In this document: piece by piece, positions 1,567 to 12,557 of the stretch
How the letters are laid out: every line of letters starts with the position of its first letter
Numbering within the stretch: the stretch's first letter is position 1
Assembly (NCBI RefSeq): GCF_011440375.1
Contig: NZ_JAAOIR010000002.1
Coordinates: forward strand, 186,001-250,000
Direction: 5' to 3'
Length of the DNA: 64,000 nt
Source of the DNA: Halorubellus sp. JP-L1
GTDB taxonomy: Archaea; Halobacteriota; Halobacteria; Halobacteriales; Natrialbaceae
Position numbers and translations under genes: made by a program
Notes under the pieces: generated by a model
What the model was told of the DNA's origin: nothing
The model's input: the letters and a program-made list of their open reading frames with translations, nothing else
Databases searched by the model: none

Positions 1567-3012
1567 TCATCCGTCAACGAGGTGTGATAGACCGGCGCGA
1601 TCTGTCACTGCTTCCGCTGCGGTCTGCGCGGACTCCAGCAAGTTCGGATACTGTTCGTTTGCGAACTCGACTTCCCTGTCCTCCATGATCACGTTTCCAT
1701 CGCACACGACTGTGTGAACTTCGTGTCCCTGAGTCTGAGTAACGACCGTGGGAGCGACCTCTTGCTGGGGCGTGAGATGAGCGTGATCTGTATCGAGAAA
1801 GACGACATCTGCGCGTTTCCCTTCCTCGATCGAACCGAGTTCGTCTTCTCGCCCAATCGCCCGTGCACCCTCGATAGTAACCATCTCCAACGTCTGTTCC
1901 GCAGTGAGCGCTCCCGCATCCAACCGAACCGCCTTCTGGATGAGCGTCGCGACCCGTAGGTCGCTGAGGGGATTCACCAAGTCGTTTGCGCTCGGATTGT
2001 CTGTCCCCATCCCGACCGTGATTCCGTAATTCACCATCGTTGGAACTGGAGCGAATCCGGACCCCAGCGAAAGATTGGTGAGCGGGTTGTGCGCTACCTT
2101 CGTATCTGTAGCTGCTAACAGACGCATGTCCCGTTCATCGACGTGGACACAGTGAGCTAACAGCGCCCGTTCACCGAGATAATCGACGCTCTCCAGGTAC
2201 TCGACGTTAGAGATCATCGCGGAGTCGTCCTCTAACGTTTCGGAGACGTGCGTGGTCGTCATCACGTCGTACTCCTCGGCGAGGTCGTAGGAGCGTTCGA
2301 AGCCCTCTGGGGTGACAGTCCAGACGTGTTCCGGAGCAACCCAAACGCTCTGTCGGCCCTCTTCTGCTTCTCGATGATACTCCTCGATGAGTTCGGTTAT
2401 TCTCTCGAGCGCATCTGCGGTTTCGACGAGCGAATACGTCGGCGGTACGTGGTTTACCTCCGGTTCCTTCCTGAGCAATCGCCCGATAAACCGTTCGAAT
2501 TCTGCGCCGACGTCGTCGTTGTCCCTGAAGGTAGCGGCGTACACGTTCCGAAGCCCAGCGGCCTCGTAGACCGCCATCTTCTTTTCGACGATCTCCTCGA
2601 AATCCTCGCTGCCCATGAGGATGGCTTCCGGGAGCTCCACGAACGTCGTGACCCCCGCTCGAATGGCCTCCGTGCAGTAGAGTGCGGCAGCGATTTCGTG
2701 GTCTTCGGGGGTCATCGCGTGGACGCCGGGCTTTTTCACGTTGAACAGCCAGTCGTGGATCGACCGATCTCGACTGACGCCACCTCGGAGAAGAATATCA
2801 GACACGTGCGCGTGTGGAATGACGAACCCAGGCAAGACCACGTCTCCCGAAGCTTCGATCGTTTGGCCGGGGTCGTACTTGGGCGCGACCGTTTCCGTGG
2901 GACCCACTTCGACGATTCTGCCCTCGTCAACCGCTATGGAGCCATCGTCGATGATTTCTCGTTTCTCGTTCTGCGTCGCGACCGTCCCACTTCTGATGAG
3001 GAGATCGACCAT
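1567..3012 (-). CDS. amidohydrolase, AtzA/TrzN/cytosine deaminase-like
   Basis: Metal-dependent hydrolase of the amidohydrolase superfamily that would deaminate or dechlorinate a heterocyclic or amide substrate. The start is taken at the ATG giving MVDLLIRSG, because the preceding 35 residues of the longer frame lack family character. Metal-site motifs appear in order: HAH after VVLPGFVIP, His in THVSETLED, His in ALLAHCVHVDE, the VAHNPLTNLSLGSG loop and Asp in GMGTDNPSAND. The 481-aa length is normal for the family. The C-terminal GKRADVVFLD strand is also typical. It is convergent with the amidase. The exact substrate cannot be read from the sequence. Confidence 0.9.
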   Translation of the reverse strand: MVDLLIRSGTVATQNEKREIIDDGSIAVDEGRIVEVGPTETVAPKYDPGQTIEASGDVVLPGFVIPHAHVSDILLRGGVSRDRSIHDWLFNVKKPGVHAMTPEDHEIAAALYCTEAIRAGVTTFVELPEAILMGSEDFEEIVEKKMAVYEAAGLRNVYAATFRDNDDVGAEFERFIGRLLRKEPEVNHVPPTYSLVETADALERITELIEEYHREAEEGRQSVWVAPEHVWTVTPEGFERSYDLAEEYDVMTTTHVSETLEDDSAMISNVEYLESVDYLGERALLAHCVHVDERDMRLLAATDTKVAHNPLTNLSLGSGFAPVPTMVNYGITVGMGTDNPSANDLVNPLSDLRVATLIQKAVRLDAGALTAEQTLEMVTIEGARAIGREDELGSIEEGKRADVVFLDTDHAHLTPQQEVAPTVVTQTQGHEVHTVVCDGNVIMEDREVEFANEQYPNLLESAQTAAEAVTDRAGLSHLVDG

Positions 3013-3276
3013 TTTATCGAATTTGCGTGAGGGATTACCATGAGTGTATCTAAGTGTAACTGAACATATGGTTTCGAACAGCGACCGGAGTTGAGGATGG
3101 ATTGCACGCTCGACCATCAGTGGTCGGTGGGTGAAACCGAAACTGTATCGATATATTCATCAACCGTCTCACTCAGTCCGATACCTGCGAATATATCCGG
3201 CCTGTCCATCAGTTGGGCGAGTAAGGAGTGAATTGAATCGTAGTCCTTCCTCTCCGGTTCGGCAAATCATCTTTAG

Positions 3277-4227: not shown

Positions 4228-4367
4228 GTGAGCACCCTCGACGACTTCACGACCACCAGCGACGAAGTCAAGGCCAACGAGGAGTGCGACTGCGAAGAGC
4301 TGCCTGACAGTGCCCCTCCTGAGATTTCTACATCGTTGGCGGCGCCGGGTTTGGTGGTGCGGCATGA
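4228..4367 (+). pseudogene. small Cys-motif protein remnant, frameshifted
   Basis: A GTG-initiated frame opens with STLDDFTTTSDEVKANEECD followed by CEELPD, a CDC-x-x-LPD pattern I associate with small zinc-binding proteins of haloarchaeal plasmids and proviruses. The reading then jumps frame: the next phase gives DFYIVGGAGFGGAA and a TGA that overlaps the ATG of the following gene. One indel therefore separates the two halves. Function is unknown. Confidence 0.45.
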
Positions 4368-5434
4368 GCACCGAGTACGCCGGCTACACCCGCGACGGCC
4401 GCGTCCTCGACTGGTCAACTACCGATGCAGCCTCTACCAGCAACACGGGAAGAACTTCCTCGACACTAAGCTCGCCGCGAACGTCATCCGCAGCGCGGCC
4501 ACCCGCACCGCCGACCACGCCCTCGGCGACGGCAACGCCAGCGAACTTCAGGGGATCGTCGGCCTCACGGGCCACGAGCAGGACGCGAACGACACGATGG
4601 TGGAGATCGTCGACCGCCTCGCCGACGAGGGCTGCGTCGCCCTTATCGTCGGCCCGCCCGGCACCGGGAAGACAGCCACCACGCTCGACACCGCCCGCGC
4701 TTGGGGCGTCCTACCGGCGGCTACATTTCGGGAACACGAGCTGGGACGGCTTCGACGGCGTCGTTTCTATGGACGTCGAGATGCTCGAAGCGATGGCCGG
4801 CGTCGACGGTCAGACCCTCGGCGTCGTCGACGAGTCCAACCAGAACCTCTCCGGCGAGGGTGCCGACTCGAAGAAAGCCCAACAGTTCGTCGACCGCGCC
4901 ACGTTCATCCGCAAGAAGGAGGGCGCACACGGCCCCTACGCCAAGCGCGGATCACTCCTCATCGTCGGGCACACCGAGATGAAGACCGCGGCCGACATCC
5001 GCCGCCTCGCCACCCTCATCATCCAGAAGCCCAGTCGCGCCGACCCCGGCAAAGCCGTCCTCTACGAGTCGCCCGGCGGGAAGGACGAGAAGTCGAAGAT
5101 CGGCGAGTACAAGGGCCTCACCAACACCCGCGAGTCCTACAGCCAGCACGAGGCCTCAAAGTTCGACGTCGTCCTCGACGATGACGACGAGGAGGACAGC
5201 GTCGACGTCGATGACGTCCGCCGAGACGAGGCTATCATGACCGCCATTCCCGCCACGAAGCCGTGGATAGACGACGGCATGGGCTATCGCGAGATAGCGG
5301 ACACCAGAGAGAACGGCCAGCACAGCAACAGACTCATGGAGAAACCGAAGAGCTGGGTCGGCGACCGCGTCCGCGAGTGGAAGGACGGACAGCATCGAGA
5401 CCCGGAGGACGCGCCAGATGGTGATCCCGCATGA
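4364..5434 (+). pseudogene. P-loop ATPase of a provirus/plasmid, two frameshifts
   Basis: Starts MSTEYAGYTRDGRVLDW. One indel near 4415-4430 shifts the frame, and a second near 4700-4735 shifts it back. Between them lies a Walker A motif GPPGTGKT (4651-4674) after VALIV. Downstream parts include a Walker-B-like LGVVDESNQN, a LLIVGHTEMKT strand and an acidic tail. The last part (WIDDGMGYREIADTRENG) looks like a DNA-binding domain. Restored length would be about 355 residues. The architecture fits the packaging- or replication-type ATPases of haloarchaeal integrated elements, but no exact family is claimed. The paired indels could be sequencing errors, though the neighbouring genes are broken as well. 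Confidence 0.6.
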
Positions 5435-5606: not shown

Positions 5607-6010
5607 ATGACGGACGTGACGATATCGAACACTCGCGTCGACCTCGGCGAGCTGCGGCGCGACGTCATCGCACCGTCGCTCTGGATCGTCGCGATTCTCG
5701 CGTGGGGCGTCGGCGACCTCGCGACGACCTGGGCAGGCTACTAGACCGCGCACGCCGTCGAAGCAACGCCGTTCGTCAACACCGTGATCCAGCGGTCGGG
5801 GCAGGCCGGCCACGCCGCCGTCAAGGCGCTCACGTTCGGCCTCGCGTGGCTCTACTACCAGCAATCCTCATCGCCATGGCCGCCGACTTCGACGTCGACG
5901 AGGACCGCGTGCGTACCGTCTGCCTCGCCATCCCGCTCGCGTTCATACTCGCCGGCGGCTGGCTCACGCTGTCGAATCTCGATGTCATCCTCGCAGGTGG
6001 TCGGCCGTGA
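5607..6010 (+). pseudogene. small multi-pass membrane protein, amber stop plus frameshift
   Basis: Begins MTDVTISNTRVDLGELRRDV, followed by a transmembrane segment (SLWIVAILAWGVGDLATTW). A TAG at 5742-5744 interrupts the frame after WAGY. The same frame then continues TAHAVEATPFVNTVI up to about 5860, where an indel moves the reading to the phase giving AIPLAFILAGGWLTLSNLDV. The DLATTxxG...EATPF pattern recalls DUF5658-like small membrane proteins. The stop overlaps the GTG of the next gene (GTGA), so the two were once translated together. Confidence 0.55.
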
Positions 6011-6393
6011 TACCGCTCAATCACGGATTTGGCGAGCCCGAACCCGGCCTCGGCGTGCTCCTCGCGTTTCCCCTATTGCTCCTCTATTCGTGGTTCGAGA
6101 AACGATACACAGATGAGACAGACCCCGTCGACGACCTCCGAGATCAGTACGTCGCCGGCGACCTCACGCCCGAAGAGTTCGAGGACCGCGTCGCGCTCGA
6201 ACTCGACGACCGCGCCCAGGAGACCCGCCAGCGTCTCGAATGCATCGACGGCATCGGCCCCGACACCAGCGCGATCATCGCCCGCCGGTTCCGCACGCTC
6301 GACGAGCTGCGCGAAGCCAGCCGCGAGGAGATCAAGGACGTCCACGGCATCGGCCCGTCGACGTCGAAGGCCATTCGACAGTCCCTCGACTGA
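6007..6393 (+). CDS. SHOCT and helix-hairpin-helix domain protein
   Basis: 128-aa protein starting at a GTG that overlaps the upstream TGA. It has one N-terminal transmembrane segment (VLLAFPLLLLYSWF). A SHOCT-type segment follows (DDLRDQYVAGDLTPEEFEDR, about residues 45-65). The C-terminal tandem helix-hairpin-helix region carries IDGIGPDTSAIIARRF and VHGIGPSTSKAIRQSL and would bind DNA or assist assembly. It is intact although both upstream genes are broken. Such proteins recur in haloarchaeal integrated elements. The molecular role is unknown. Confidence 0.72.
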   Translation: MIPLNHGFGEPEPGLGVLLAFPLLLLYSWFEKRYTDETDPVDDLRDQYVAGDLTPEEFEDRVALELDDRAQETRQRLECIDGIGPDTSAIIARRFRTLDELREASREEIKDVHGIGPSTSKAIRQSLD

Positions 6394-6790: not shown

Positions 6791-7813
6791 ATGTCACCTC
6801 AAGATAAATTCGGGTCAACCCCCTATGATGAAGAACGGGAGGTTGCGAACAAAGTCTTGAGGGCAATTGACCTCGCCATTGAGGACGAAATCGAAAGCCT
6901 CGACCGGCGAATAACCCGCCTTGAACAGGAGAAACTGTGCTATTTCGCGATCGAGGAATTCAATCTCCCGATTACGTACAGCTGGTATGTAGAAGGAGCG
7001 TATACACGTGTTGCTGGAGATCCCGATGGTGCAGTAAATCGGATCACTGCTGATTCTCCGAACGCCCTCCAAGATCCTGGAGAAGACGATGATGTAAACA
7101 AATTCAGGGAATTTTTCCGGTCAACCGAGTTCTTTGGAGACTACAAGCTTCGTGATATCTGGTATACAAACCGATACGAATTCCTGAAGGACTTTTACAA
7201 GGCGGAATCGCCCTCCGATTTCACCGACTTGTATATTTCATCCACCAACATCCGACAACAGCTCTCCGAGATCAGTAAGTCACTCGCCACCCAGAACAAG
7301 AATCGAAGTCTCGCGGAGTTCACCGACGCTGATTCGGCAAGTGCCATCACGGACGACGTAGAACAGGAGTTCAGGCTCTCTATTTCCGACTTTCATCTCG
7401 AATTGGCCAGTATCGAGAAGTTCGAGGACCTCATGGACGTATTATCACAATCAACTAATATCCTGGAACACATATTAGCGCGTCTCACGGAGCTTGATTC
7501 GCCATCTGAATCGCAAGAAGCGGTGGTTGCCGATCTAAACGATTACTTCTACTACGGGGTCTGGCGATTCCCAGCGCTGTATATCTCAGCCAGGACTGCA
7601 ACAGGACCAAACAGTCATCACCTGATTGACGAACATGTCCGTGAATTCGAATCATTCCACGGAGAATTTGTCCCCCGGGTAAAGCGGATGGAATCTCAAG
7701 CCAAGCAGGAAAGCTTACTTCCGGACGCAGGGTCCCACTCTAAACGTCTGAAAGAAGGTTACTCGTCGTACTTGCATAATTTGACAAAGGAAAGCCTGGA
7801 GAGGGATGCATGA
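6791..7813 (+). CDS. uncharacterised mostly helical 340-aa protein (first gene of module)
   Basis: I do not recognise this family. The protein is rich in charged helical stretches (for example LRAIDLAIEDEIESLDRRIT near residues 28-47), with an aromatic patch YFAIEEFNLPITYSWYVEG and a later YFYYGVWRFPALYISART segment. It has no signal peptide, transmembrane segment, P-loop or zinc motif. Its base composition is visibly more AT-rich than the flanking core genes, and it lies in the accessory region. The stop overlaps the ATG of the PIN-like gene by 4 nt (ATGA), so the two are co-translated and probably act together. A sensor, antitoxin or regulatory partner of the PIN protein is the simplest idea (inference). 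Confidence 0.75.
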   Translation: MSPQDKFGSTPYDEEREVANKVLRAIDLAIEDEIESLDRRITRLEQEKLCYFAIEEFNLPITYSWYVEGAYTRVAGDPDGAVNRITADSPNALQDPGEDDDVNKFREFFRSTEFFGDYKLRDIWYTNRYEFLKDFYKAESPSDFTDLYISSTNIRQQLSEISKSLATQNKNRSLAEFTDADSASAITDDVEQEFRLSISDFHLELASIEKFEDLMDVLSQSTNILEHILARLTELDSPSESQEAVVADLNDYFYYGVWRFPALYISARTATGPNSHHLIDEHVREFESFHGEFVPRVKRMESQAKQESLLPDAGSHSKRLKEGYSSYLHNLTKESLERDA

Positions 7814-8466
7814 ATCATCGCAAGCAGCTGAATCTTGACACTTCAATTCTGGTCAACTATGTATATACTCAATTACCCGAGAACATCGAATCAGACAGGG
7901 GATCAGCGAAAATCCTTGAAGGAGATGATTTCTATACGGTCATTGGGGGGAAGGCAGAGGGAGAGTTCGTCCGGTTATGTGAACGACGCCATGAATTGTA
8001 TGAGGACGTAGTCAAATTTCTTCGTGGGACAGACTCTGATTTGGTGGATTACGCCCCATTATCCCGAGATATTCACCTCAGCGACAACGATAAAAAGCAC
8101 ATCCGAAAGGACATCCAGATGAGCTGGTACGAGATGGAAAAGCGGGAACAGCTTTCCCAGCTCCGTCGGTGCGTCCAAGACTTCGAATTATTCCGCAATC
8201 AGATTCCCAATCAGATTGTCGATCAAACCTACCCGAAGTCCTCCAATCCGGAGCTACAAAGGCGGATAGAGTCAGAGCTTGAGATAAACCATGACTGCGA
8301 GATCATCGTCGATGCAGTAGAGATCTCTAATAGGCATTCAATTTCGGTACTGGTTGCAATCGACTCTGATATAATATCTGACACCAATTCAGACGCAATT
8401 CGTTCGATAATAGAAGACCTCACTGGCGATCCGTTAATCGAGATAATATCTGCCGAAGATCTATAG
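7810..8466 (+). CDS. PIN-like nuclease domain protein (second gene of module)
   Basis: 218-aa protein with the layout of a PIN ribonuclease. The first strand LNLDTSILVNYV carries Asp10, Glu50/Glu52 follow in GGKAEGEFV, and the C-terminal half has EIIVDAVEIS (Asp168) and VLVAIDSDII (Asp185, Asp187). These would form the acidic metal site. The middle (residues 60-150) is longer than in small VapC toxins and mostly helical. It overlaps the upstream gene by 4 nt, so the pair is one transcription unit. A toxin or defence effector RNase is plausible. The PIN call rests on motif spacing by eye. Confidence 0.6.
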   Translation: MNHRKQLNLDTSILVNYVYTQLPENIESDRGSAKILEGDDFYTVIGGKAEGEFVRLCERRHELYEDVVKFLRGTDSDLVDYAPLSRDIHLSDNDKKHIRKDIQMSWYEMEKREQLSQLRRCVQDFELFRNQIPNQIVDQTYPKSSNPELQRRIESELEINHDCEIIVDAVEISNRHSISVLVAIDSDIISDTNSDAIRSIIEDLTGDPLIEIISAEDL

Positions 8467-9690: not shown

Positions 9691-10307
9691 ATGCGCACCG
9701 AACGGAACAAGGACGGCACCTGGAACGTCTGGATGACCCGCGACGAGTACCGAGAGATACCTCGGCACGCCGGTCGGGCCTCGAAGAAGTCGCCCTCTGA
9801 CTGATGGGCGACCGCGGGCTTCGCGTCGCCGAAGTCCTCGACGTCCGCCCGTGCGACGTCTCTCGCCGGAGCGACGGTCGGCACTACAAGCTCGAAGTCG
9901 TCGGCGGGAAAGACACCAGCGGCGAGTACGACGGCGGCAAGCACCGTGAGACGTGGGTCCCGCTCGACCTCGAGGCACACATCAACCGAATCGTAAACGC
10001 TGACGTAAACGAGATCGACGACCGTGACTGCCTCGTCGACAGGTCCCAGTGTACACTATAGAACTGGGTGGACGCCGCCGCCGCCCGAGCTGCCGACGAG
10101 AACGGCGATGATGACTACCGGCGCGTGAGTACACACTACCCCCGGCGGTGCTGGGCCAACCATCTGCTCGTCGAGGAGAACGTCAGTCCGCAGCTCGTCA
10201 TGGCACTCGGTGGGTAGAGTTCTTACGACGCTATTGAACCGTACCTTGGTGCATTCACTAAGGAGAACATCAATTCGTCGATGGTCAGCGATGACCCCTG
10301 GTATTCA
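9691..10307 (+). pseudogene. tyrosine recombinase (integrase), inactivated
   Basis: Remnant of a haloarchaeal XerC/phage-type integrase. It opens with MRTERNKDGTWNVWMTRDEY and shifts frame near 9795. It continues with GDRGLRVAEVLDVRP (catalytic Arg) and a VVGGKD strand (Lys), then meets TAG at 10059-10061. In the same frame follow STHYPRRCWANHLL (His-x-x-Arg box) and ALGG, a TAG at 10215-10217 where a Trp is expected, and SSYDAIEPYLGAF with the nucleophilic Tyr. One frameshift and two stops make it non-functional. It marks the neighbourhood as a former integrated element. Confidence 0.8.
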
Positions 10308-10538: not shown

Positions 10539-12557
10539 ATGGGTTACGTGTTCGAGACGAAGGTGAAGTTCGGCGATACGGGGGACGTCGTCGACTATCG
10601 CCGTGAGCAGATCGGGCGGCTCGATAAGTTCCGCGAGTACTTCGACGGCGCCGAAGAGGTGTTCGCAGTTACCTACAGTGACTCGCCGGAGACCTTACTG
10701 AAGATGCTCGGCGAGTTTGAGATTGGCCGGTTGGAGGTCGTCGTCGGCAACGTCGAAGACTACCGTGAGCAGCTCACCGATAAGCCGGCCCGGGCCGATC
10801 GGCTCGAACGGTTACGCAGCGACGGCCGGCTCGTCATCTACACCTGTCCTGGATGGGGTGTCCACACGAAGCTCTACCTCATCAAGCACGGGGGTGGGGA
10901 CTGGACGCTCATCGACACGTCAGCGAACCTGTCGAAGACGGGGTGGGGGCATCAGACCAACATGGCGACGGTGTACGAGACGGATGGGTCAACAGTCATC
11001 GACGAAGAGTTCCACGAGTCCTACGTGCTGCACCGTGACACGTATGGCGAGGAGTTCATGCAGGACTTGAGCGAGCGGTTGGAGGATGTTGAAGATGAAG
11101 AGGAGCGCGAGCAGATTATTGACAGTTGGGTGGATGGACGCTCAACGGCGAAGAGCGAGTCCGAGGAGTTGAATGAACGGTTCATGGACGAGGTCGACCA
11201 GTTCGTCAGCCATGAACTCGTCAAGGATGGTGAAGACGCGGACAAAACGATCGCCATCGGGGACGAAGGGGGCGGGGTTGATACGGAGTTCGGGATCTCG
11301 TTGCGAAACTTCGATTCAGGGTTCAAGAAAGACCTGATAGACGCGTCTCGGGAAACAGACATCACGGTCACCGATAATACGCTCCGTAGCACCGTGCGGG
11401 GCGTCTCGCAGTACTTCGAGCGACAGTATGGAATCCCGTCGATGTGGTTCAACGATGAGACAGGCGATCTCTTCCTGCAGACGGGCGACAGTGAGTTCCC
11501 CACGCGGATGTCTCTACCTGTACCTGAAAGTTCGGACGCCATCAACCGAGAACTTGCCAAACTAGAGGAGTACATCGAAACGGTTGACGAGTACGGCGAG
11601 ACGAACGCGCCGGAGGCGGTGAAGGCTCACCTCTTCGAGGGACTAATCTGGGTCTTCTGGGCGCCGTTCATCAACAAATACGCGAGTGTCTACCGGATGG
11701 CAGATATGAACCTCGATAAGAACTTACCTTACCTCTACATACATGGTGAGTCAGATGCAGGGAAGGGGACATTCCTCGAGTTTGCGCTCCAGAAGATTTC
11801 GAACGGGTCGGTCACTGCCAGCGAGGATGCGGACAAGGTGGGTGCAAAGTCCATCCAACAACTCCAGTACACGAACACGGTGTTTCCGTATGCGGTCGAC
11901 GACATTCCGAAACGGGATATTCACCGTTACACGACGCTACGGAACATGTGGAACAACAACTGGAGTTCTGACTGTGACTTTCCGGCAACTGCCTTCGTTA
12001 GCAACGACAAGCGCCCGAAGAAGTGGGTCCGGAACCGGTCGAAAGTTCTCCACTTCGATGTTGTGTTCCGCTCGACGAAACAAAGCGAGGCGGCAGTGGC
12101 GAAGCTGAAGCGCCGGGATAACATGACGTTCAACTGGTTTTCCACGCTAATGATCGAGTCAGAGGTGTCGATTGGCGACCACGATGACACTCTCCGTAAC
12201 GCACGAAACACTTTCGTCGAACTGTACAGGCGGGCCAACCGGGAATTGCCGGTGTACTTCCCGAGAGAGCCTGCCGATAAGGTATACAGTACAGGGCGGC
12301 GGCGGTGGCGGAACGCTTGGGAAGACTCGTTGTTCGAAGTCGAAGAGCGGCGCGGAGAGCTAGTGTGCACATTCCCGGAGCTCGAACGACCGGAACTCTA
12401 CCGGTACGAGAAGACAATCCCGACACGGCTGCGGGCGAACGTCGAGGGGAACCGCGTAGTGATTGGGGCCGGCCGTGAGGCGTTTGAGGACTGGTTAGAG
12501 GAAGACCTCACGCAACACTCTGGGCTGAGGGCACACGTCACAGAATTGTTCGGATGA
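10539..12557 (+). CDS. phospholipase-D-like nuclease / SF3-AAA+-like ATPase fusion protein
   Basis: 672-aa protein starting at ATG 10539 (MGYVFETKVKFGDTGD). The longer frame upstream is the tail of the integrase remnant. Residues 1-150 form a PLD-like domain: His109-x-Lys111 in VHTKLYLIKHG, then TSANLSKTGWG with Asn130, matching the HxK...GSxN layout of one PLD half-site. A Glu/Asp-rich linker spans about 185-255. The C-terminal half has Walker A GESDAGKGT (residues 403-411), a Walker-B-like FPYAVDDI (Asp454-Asp455) and a motif-C/sensor-1 strand ending Asn489 (FPATAFVSND), as in SF3 helicases and AAA+ proteins. A basic region follows. No primase domain is seen. Combining nuclease and ATPase in one chain next to an integrase remnant suggests DNA restriction or element defence (inference). 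Confidence 0.72.
   Translation: MGYVFETKVKFGDTGDVVDYRREQIGRLDKFREYFDGAEEVFAVTYSDSPETLLKMLGEFEIGRLEVVVGNVEDYREQLTDKPARADRLERLRSDGRLVIYTCPGWGVHTKLYLIKHGGGDWTLIDTSANLSKTGWGHQTNMATVYETDGSTVIDEEFHESYVLHRDTYGEEFMQDLSERLEDVEDEEEREQIIDSWVDGRSTAKSESEELNERFMDEVDQFVSHELVKDGEDADKTIAIGDEGGGVDTEFGISLRNFDSGFKKDLIDASRETDITVTDNTLRSTVRGVSQYFERQYGIPSMWFNDETGDLFLQTGDSEFPTRMSLPVPESSDAINRELAKLEEYIETVDEYGETNAPEAVKAHLFEGLIWVFWAPFINKYASVYRMADMNLDKNLPYLYIHGESDAGKGTFLEFALQKISNGSVTASEDADKVGAKSIQQLQYTNTVFPYAVDDIPKRDIHRYTTLRNMWNNNWSSDCDFPATAFVSNDKRPKKWVRNRSKVLHFDVVFRSTKQSEAAVAKLKRRDNMTFNWFSTLMIESEVSIGDHDDTLRNARNTFVELYRRANRELPVYFPREPADKVYSTGRRRWRNAWEDSLFEVEERRGELVCTFPELERPELYRYEKTIPTRLRANVEGNRVVIGAGREAFEDWLEEDLTQHSGLRAHVTELFG

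What the first reader, a model, noticed from the sequence alone, without database searches (positions are those of the whole stretch)
10539..12557. PLD-like nuclease fused to an SF3/AAA+-like ATPase
One 672-aa chain has an HxK...SxN phospholipase-D half-site (His109, Lys111, Asn130) and an ATPase core with GESDAGKGT, FPYAVDDI and a motif-C-like strand ending in Asn489. SF3-type cores are usually joined to primases, not PLD nucleases. It sits intact beside a dead integrase while neighbouring element genes are broken, which hints at retained benefit such as defence.
Basis: partly seen in the sequence, partly recalled or inferred. Interest (0 to 1): 0.66.

Follow-up and report, generated by a model that had tools for sequence, protein, structure and literature searches.

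The report
Argonaute-less AgaP-type PLD–SF3 nuclease gene
A salt-loving archaeon carries a lone copy of a DNA-cutting defence protein that in its relatives usually works beside an Argonaute immune protein; the copy has an overlooked ATP-driven motor domain and one odd change at its active site, which may explain how the cell tolerates it without the partner.

Summary
The 672-aa ORF at 10539-12557 has a PLD fold (single HxK…SxN half-site) joined to an SF3/AAA+-type ATPase; structure prediction (pLDDT 86) and fold searches support both. The family is not new: it is the AgaP family (Ago-associated PLD protein) of haloarchaeal "APAP" defence systems (Cheng et al. 2024, PMC11442185). The studied Np_AgaP is a full-length homologue (36% identical), and its catalytic residues map onto P0001. 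What is new: (1) the ATPase is invariant across 70 relatives, yet "ATPase" and "AAA" do not occur in the AgaP paper's main text; (2) AgaP's reported "split HxK(x)49GSxN motif" is an insertion in one subclade, the family norm being HxK(x)16GSxN; (3) this copy has no Argonaute in a 99.8%-complete genome, although AgaP alone was toxic in Haloarcula; (4) it alone of 70 has Thr for the motif Gly, where Ala abolished Np_AgaP toxicity; (5) relatives cluster with Ago, with an OB-domain exonuclease-like protein sharing Ago's N-terminal domain, with a UvrD/PD-(D/E)XK/helicase trio, or with Mre11-Rad50-NurA-HerA. Most likely an orphaned, possibly attenuated APAP effector; the locus is not an APAP system. 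Whether it still acts alone is open.

The parts
10539..12557 (+). AgaP-family gene, 672 aa, PLD nuclease half-site joined to SF3/AAA+-type ATPase
10614..11048 (+). PLD domain, residues 26-170
   Evidence: model and Foldseek hits to SauUSI, NgoAVII R protein, Nuc, BfiI; PLDc_2 in 41/42 family members
10863..10871 (+). HxK motif, H109-T-K111; equals Np_AgaP H105/K107
   Evidence: mutagenesis of Np_AgaP in PMC11442185
10917..10928 (+). T127-S128-A129-N130, the GSxN motif with Thr for Gly; equals Np_AgaP G157/S158/N160
   Evidence: Gly in 69/70 family members, Thr only here; G157A abolished Np_AgaP toxicity
11049..11528 (+). variable linker/middle domain, residues 171-330
   Evidence: 26% identity to Np_AgaP against 46-47% in PLD and ATPase; low confidence 233-247
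11529..12158 (+). SF3/AAA+-type ATPase core, residues 331-540
   Evidence: invariant motifs
11745..11768 (+). Walker A GESDAGKG, residues 403-410
   Evidence: G403, G408, K409 invariant 70/70
11883..11903 (+). Walker B FPYAVDD, residues 449-455
   Evidence: D455 invariant 70/70
11985..12008 (+). motif C / sensor-1-like strand ATAFVSND, residues 483-490
   Evidence: N489 invariant 70/70
12036..12038 (+). R500, candidate arginine finger
   Evidence: invariant 70/70; role inferred
9804..10061 (+). truncated tyrosine-recombinase remnant, 85 aa
   Evidence: 72% identical to part of a 200-aa integrase-like ORF in G001

Best explanation
This is an AgaP-family effector: an ATP-driven PLD nuclease of haloarchaeal Argonaute-linked defence, here orphaned from its Argonaute. 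Two PLD half-sites pair, as in Nuc and BfiI, to form one metal-independent nuclease centre (inferred). The SF3-type ATPase is a ring motor that loads on or remodels DNA and powers or gates cutting (inferred). In complete APAP systems Argonaute restrains AgaP and the pair acts on extrachromosomal DNA (shown by others for one homologue). In this genome no Argonaute was found (shown). The gene is therefore either a residual effector kept in check by its own ATPase and by a weakened active site (Thr127 for Gly), or a not yet decayed leftover. I favour an attenuated, still folded protein.
For: Full-length homology to Np_AgaP, the H105/K107/G157/S158/N160 protein of PMC11442185. P0001 groups with the Ago-linked clade: SH-aLRT 100 for 31 rows, 19 of them Ago-adjacent, and it carries that clade's GKG and DD residues. 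Its nearest relatives, at 42%, lie directly next to Ago (L021; L115). Genome-level co-occurrence: 28 genomes with both where 8.2 of 293 are expected, p = 6e-14 (not corrected for phylogeny). No Ago in G000 by Pfam Piwi, by a single Ago, or by an Ago profile that finds 37 Agos in sister genomes. All PLD and ATPase residues retained apart from T127. Structure.
Against: No close relative (best 42%), so selection on this copy cannot be measured. Orphans are common: 37 of 65 AgaP-positive genomes lack Ago, so lack of Ago need not mean loss of function nor require attenuation. Thr in place of Gly may be harmless: TDP1 is described by an HKN motif only, and from memory human TDP1 has TSAN. An Ago on an unassembled plasmid cannot be excluded.
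Confidence: 0.72

Rival explanations
1. Inert relic: the gene came with a now broken element, lost its Argonaute and partners, and is neither needed nor toxic because Thr127 kills the nuclease.
For: G157A in Np_AgaP abolishes toxicity; Thr at this site only here of 70; truncated integrase next to it; no partner genes in the 64-kb window.
Against: 672 codons open with all other catalytic residues intact despite great divergence; codon periodicity kept.
Confidence: 0.3
2. Ago-independent solo defence nuclease: the ATPase supplies its own DNA discrimination, and orphan AgaPs act alone or with host end-processing machinery.
For: 57% of AgaP-positive genomes have no Ago; a large, mostly chromosomal clade is Ago-poor and lies beside Mre11-Rad50-NurA-HerA in 12 of 28 loci; relatives score with anti-phage PLD models.
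Against: AgaP alone was toxic in H. hispanica; no partner complex is near this copy.
Confidence: 0.25
3. Plasmid or element replication protein: SF3 helicase with a PLD nickase.
For: SF3 helicases are typical of Rep proteins; family found on 19 haloarchaeal plasmids.
Against: No phage or IMG/VR member found; one clade is largely chromosomal; no constant link to orc/ori in the annotated loci; co-transcription with ago and immunity shown for a homologue.
Confidence: 0.04

Closest known systems
AgaP / APAP system, Natrinema pellirubrum (PMC11442185)
   Same: Full-length homologue, 46% identical in the PLD domain and 47% in the ATPase core; same catalytic residues
   Different: No Argonaute here; TSAN not GSAN; HxK(x)16 not (x)50 spacing; the paper's main text contains neither 'ATPase' nor 'AAA'
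SauUSI and NgoAVII (PLD nuclease with ATPase, restriction endonucleases)
   Same: PLD nuclease coupled to an ATP motor; top PDB fold hits
   Different: From general knowledge their motors are SF2 helicases and they recognise DNA sequence or modification; here the motor is SF3/AAA+-type and no modification reader is seen
Nuc and BfiI
   Same: Single HxK...SxN half-site, fold match; known to work as dimers (general knowledge)
   Different: No ATPase
SF3-type helicases (parvovirus NS1, mavirus helicase, virophage primase-helicases) and SCCmec Cch
   Same: ATPase fold and motif order
   Different: Those are replication helicases, usually with a primase or Rep domain, not PLD; superpositions have large rmsd

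Membership tests
AgaP protein family | Homology to Np_AgaP over the full length | tested here: met
   36% identity, residues 13-655, E 3e-139
AgaP protein family | N-terminal PLD domain with HxK | tested here: met
AgaP protein family | GSxN motif | tested here: inconclusive
   S128 and N130 present, Gly replaced by Thr
AgaP protein family | Split spacing HxK(x)~49GSxN claimed for AgaPs | tested here: not met
   Spacing 16 here, and in most family members including Ago-adjacent ones; the long spacing is a subclade insertion, so I do not take it as defining the family
APAP defence system | Argonaute gene adjacent / in the genome | tested here: not met
   the locus is not filed as an APAP system
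APAP defence system | Plasmid and virus restriction | not testable with these tools
   needs expression in a haloarchaeal host
SF3 / AAA+ ATPase | Walker A, Walker B, motif C Asn and a conserved Arg in a P-loop fold | tested here: met
SF3 / AAA+ ATPase | Ring assembly and DNA-stimulated ATPase | not testable with these tools
   needs purified protein
DISARM (DrmC) / PADLOC PLD systems | Match to the system's protein models | tested here: not met
   P0001 matches none at E<=0.001; 1 of 42 family members matches DrmC and 13 match ZacB

The most novel reading that the evidence does not exclude
AgaP is an ATP-driven PLD-SF3 nuclease with a modular partner: Argonaute is one of several interchangeable DNA-processing partners (Ago; an OB-domain + DEDD-type exonuclease-like protein sharing Ago's N-terminal domain; Mre11-Rad50-NurA-HerA). 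Some solo copies such as this one act without Argonaute through an active site tuned down by Thr127.
Probability: 0.25. Interest if true: 0.72.

Novelty: new variant of a known kind. Interest (0 to 1): 0.5.

Why it matters
AgaP was reported as a PLD protein whose lone expression is lethal and whose toxicity Argonaute suppresses. An ATPase conserved in every relative means the mechanism so far omits a motor, and gives an immediate test (Walker A mutant). A natural Argonaute-less copy with a change at a residue known to control toxicity makes the question of how an effector outlives its partner directly testable. The neighbourhood data suggest that Argonaute is one interchangeable partner among DNA-end-processing machines.

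Tried and rejected
Single-sequence scans of genome and viral contigs found nothing; the alignment scan found 57 genome loci but again no viral contig. Sequence searches of the PDB gave only chance hits, so fold comparison was needed. I first took the 375-aa neighbour in L022/L023/L026/L027/L038/L039 for a short Argonaute; it matches Ago's N-terminal OB-like region, not PIWI. A shared hot spot beside the ATP synthase genes (window and L085) was considered and dropped: two cases among about 70 loci may well be chance. No remnant of Ago, the helicase trio or Mre11-Rad50 was found near the gene in the window (one marginal E=0.001 hit to an Ago N-terminus at 30.6-30.8 kb overlaps a better match to another protein). 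The integrase remnant did not match Pfam or one phage integrase; its identity rests. A paper search for a PLD-SF3 helicase fusion in archaea returned nothing.

Full report
What is there. The ORF 10539-12557 (P0001, 672 aa) is intact. It lies in a region of lower GC, about 4-12.6 kb, between an amidohydrolase gene (1567-3117) and the archaeal ATP synthase operon (from 12711 on). Codon-position GC is 0.585/0.385/0.738 against GC3 0.92 in the adjacent ATP synthase gene, which suggests acquired DNA. The genome is G000, 3.76 Mb in five contigs, 99.8% complete; the window is on contig 2.

Domains. Pfam gives only sub-threshold PLD and tyrosyl-DNA phosphodiesterase matches for this copy, but 41 of 42 family members match PLDc_2, best 6e-8. 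An AlphaFold2 model on 42 sequences has pLDDT 86.4 and pTM 0.67. Foldseek against the PDB finds SauUSI, the NgoAVII R protein, Nuc, NucT and BfiI, and the SCCmec Cch helicase. Against viral models it finds primase-helicases, parvovirus NS1, adomavirus and polyomavirus helicases and the mavirus SF3 helicase. Many long alignments have large rmsd, so they support the fold class, not the detailed domain arrangement.

Family identity. Relatives occur on 19 haloarchaeal plasmids, in 57 genome loci and in 65 of 293 sampled genomes of the order; none was found in phages or IMG/VR. The relative on N. pellirubrum pNATPE02 (L029) is the experimentally studied Np_AgaP: its residues 105, 107, 112, 119, 120, 122, 157, 158 and 160 are H, K, E, G, S, D, G, S, N, exactly as in the paper. 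Cheng et al. (PMC11442185) showed that ago and agaP are co-transcribed, that AgaP alone is toxic in H. hispanica, that H105, K107, G157, S158 and N160 are needed for toxicity, that AgaP is needed to restrict plasmids, and that immunity to a ssDNA virus relies mainly on the Ago catalytic centre and is enhanced by AgaP. A search of its main text finds no occurrence of 'ATPase' or 'AAA'. Ryazansky et al. (PMC6299218) had noted PLD proteins in pAgo operons and OB-folds in eight long pAgos.

What the comparison adds. (1) K409, D455, N489 and R500 are invariant in 70 of 70 family members, as are the PLD residues H109, K111, S128 and N130: the motor is as conserved as the nuclease. (2) HxK and GSxN are 16 residues apart (15 in one) in all but a subclade, where 45-62 residues separate them; the 'unique split motif' is therefore an insertion near Np_AgaP, absent also from many Ago-adjacent members. 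(3) The motif Gly is present in 69 of 70 and is Thr only in P0001, aligned to Np G157; further relatives fetched later all have Gly. From memory TDP1 has TSAN at this place, and P0001's best Pfam match is to the TDP1 family, so loss of activity is a hypothesis, not a conclusion.

Partners. A quick maximum-likelihood tree splits the family in two (SH-aLRT 100). The clade with P0001 has 31 rows: 19 Ago-adjacent, 6 beside a 375-aa protein, 6 with neither; long branches make the exact place of P0001 within it unsure. In loci of at least 18 kb, 22 of 28 in this clade carry Ago (16) or the 375-aa protein (6), and 15 carry a UvrD / PD-(D/E)XK / helicase trio. The 375-aa protein matches the first ~115 residues of the AgaP-linked Agos in both directions of search (E about 4e-9 and 2e-9) and weakly a DNA polymerase B exonuclease domain; DIET and Y..D motifs suggest a DEDD exonuclease (my reading). 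In N. pellirubrum a 95-aa ORF upstream of ago matches it at 3e-19 and may be a remnant. Of 32 Agos that I sorted as clearly with or without this N-terminal region in the order-wide search, 14 of 16 with it are AgaP-adjacent against 2 of 16 without (my count; Fisher 5e-5, not corrected for phylogeny). In the other clade 12 of 28 loci lie beside Mre11/Rad50/NurA/HerA-type genes. There, where the genome has an Ago, it often lies 8-33 kb away on the same contig (e.g. G010, G013, G023, G061, G116, G129, G149, G170, G212). The closest relative of P0001, L115, carries AAA-DUF4143, Ago, AgaP, Mre11, Rad50, NurA and HerA in a row. The names of these neighbours rest on plasmid annotation and Pfam for some members and on sequence clustering for the rest.

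The window copy. No Ago is found in its genome by searches that work in sister genomes, nor the 375-aa protein (no positive control), nor any partner gene beside it in the 64-kb window. AgaP and Ago co-occur far above chance (28 against 8.2 expected, p = 6e-14), yet 37 of 65 AgaP-positive genomes have no Ago. Orphaning is therefore common and not a sign of artefact.

Mechanism and confidence. Shown here: homology, fold class (by prediction), conserved sites, absence of Ago from the assembly, the unique Thr. Shown by others for a homologue: toxicity, nuclease-residue dependence, plasmid restriction. Inferred: dimeric PLD site, ring motor coupled to cutting, docking through Ago's OB-like domain, attenuation by Thr127. 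I put 0.72 on an orphaned AgaP-type effector; within that, whether it is still active is open, so the rivals 'relic' and 'solo defence' overlap with it in part.

Noticed in passing
window 6791-7813 and 7810-8466, +: Intact overlapping two-gene pair (340 and 218 aa, no Pfam match; the second begins LNLDTSILVNYVY, PIN-like by eye). A homologous pair (44% and 58% identical) lies about 4 kb from an Ago-less AgaP in L117 (G254).
   Followed up: partly
L022 10523-11650 - (also L023, L026, L027, L038, L039): 375-aa protein joining the N-terminal OB-like domain of haloarchaeal Argonaute to a DEDD exonuclease-like domain, beside agaP throughout that subclade, where Ago is absent from the locus.
   Followed up: partly
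G010, G013, G023, G061, G116, G129, G149, G170, G212: In the second AgaP clade, Ago is not adjacent but lies 8-33 kb away on the same contig, so adjacency-based counts of APAP systems are probably too low.
   Followed up: partly
L035, contig PXTN01000119.1: An AgaP relative in a record titled Bacteroidetes MAG QS_3_64_15 from a hypersaline series; may be a binning error or transfer.
   Followed up: no
L047-L052, L030, L089-L091: Conserved run AAA-DUF4143 (divergent), Ago, AgaP, UvrD-like, PD-(D/E)XK nuclease, large helicase: a candidate extended APAP operon.
   Followed up: partly
window 4228-5434, +: P-loop ATPase split over two frames (GPPGTGKTATT...), a broken element gene.
   Followed up: no
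window 6007-6393, +: Small SHOCT-like plus helix-hairpin-helix protein (Pfam HHH_2 5e-10).
   Followed up: no
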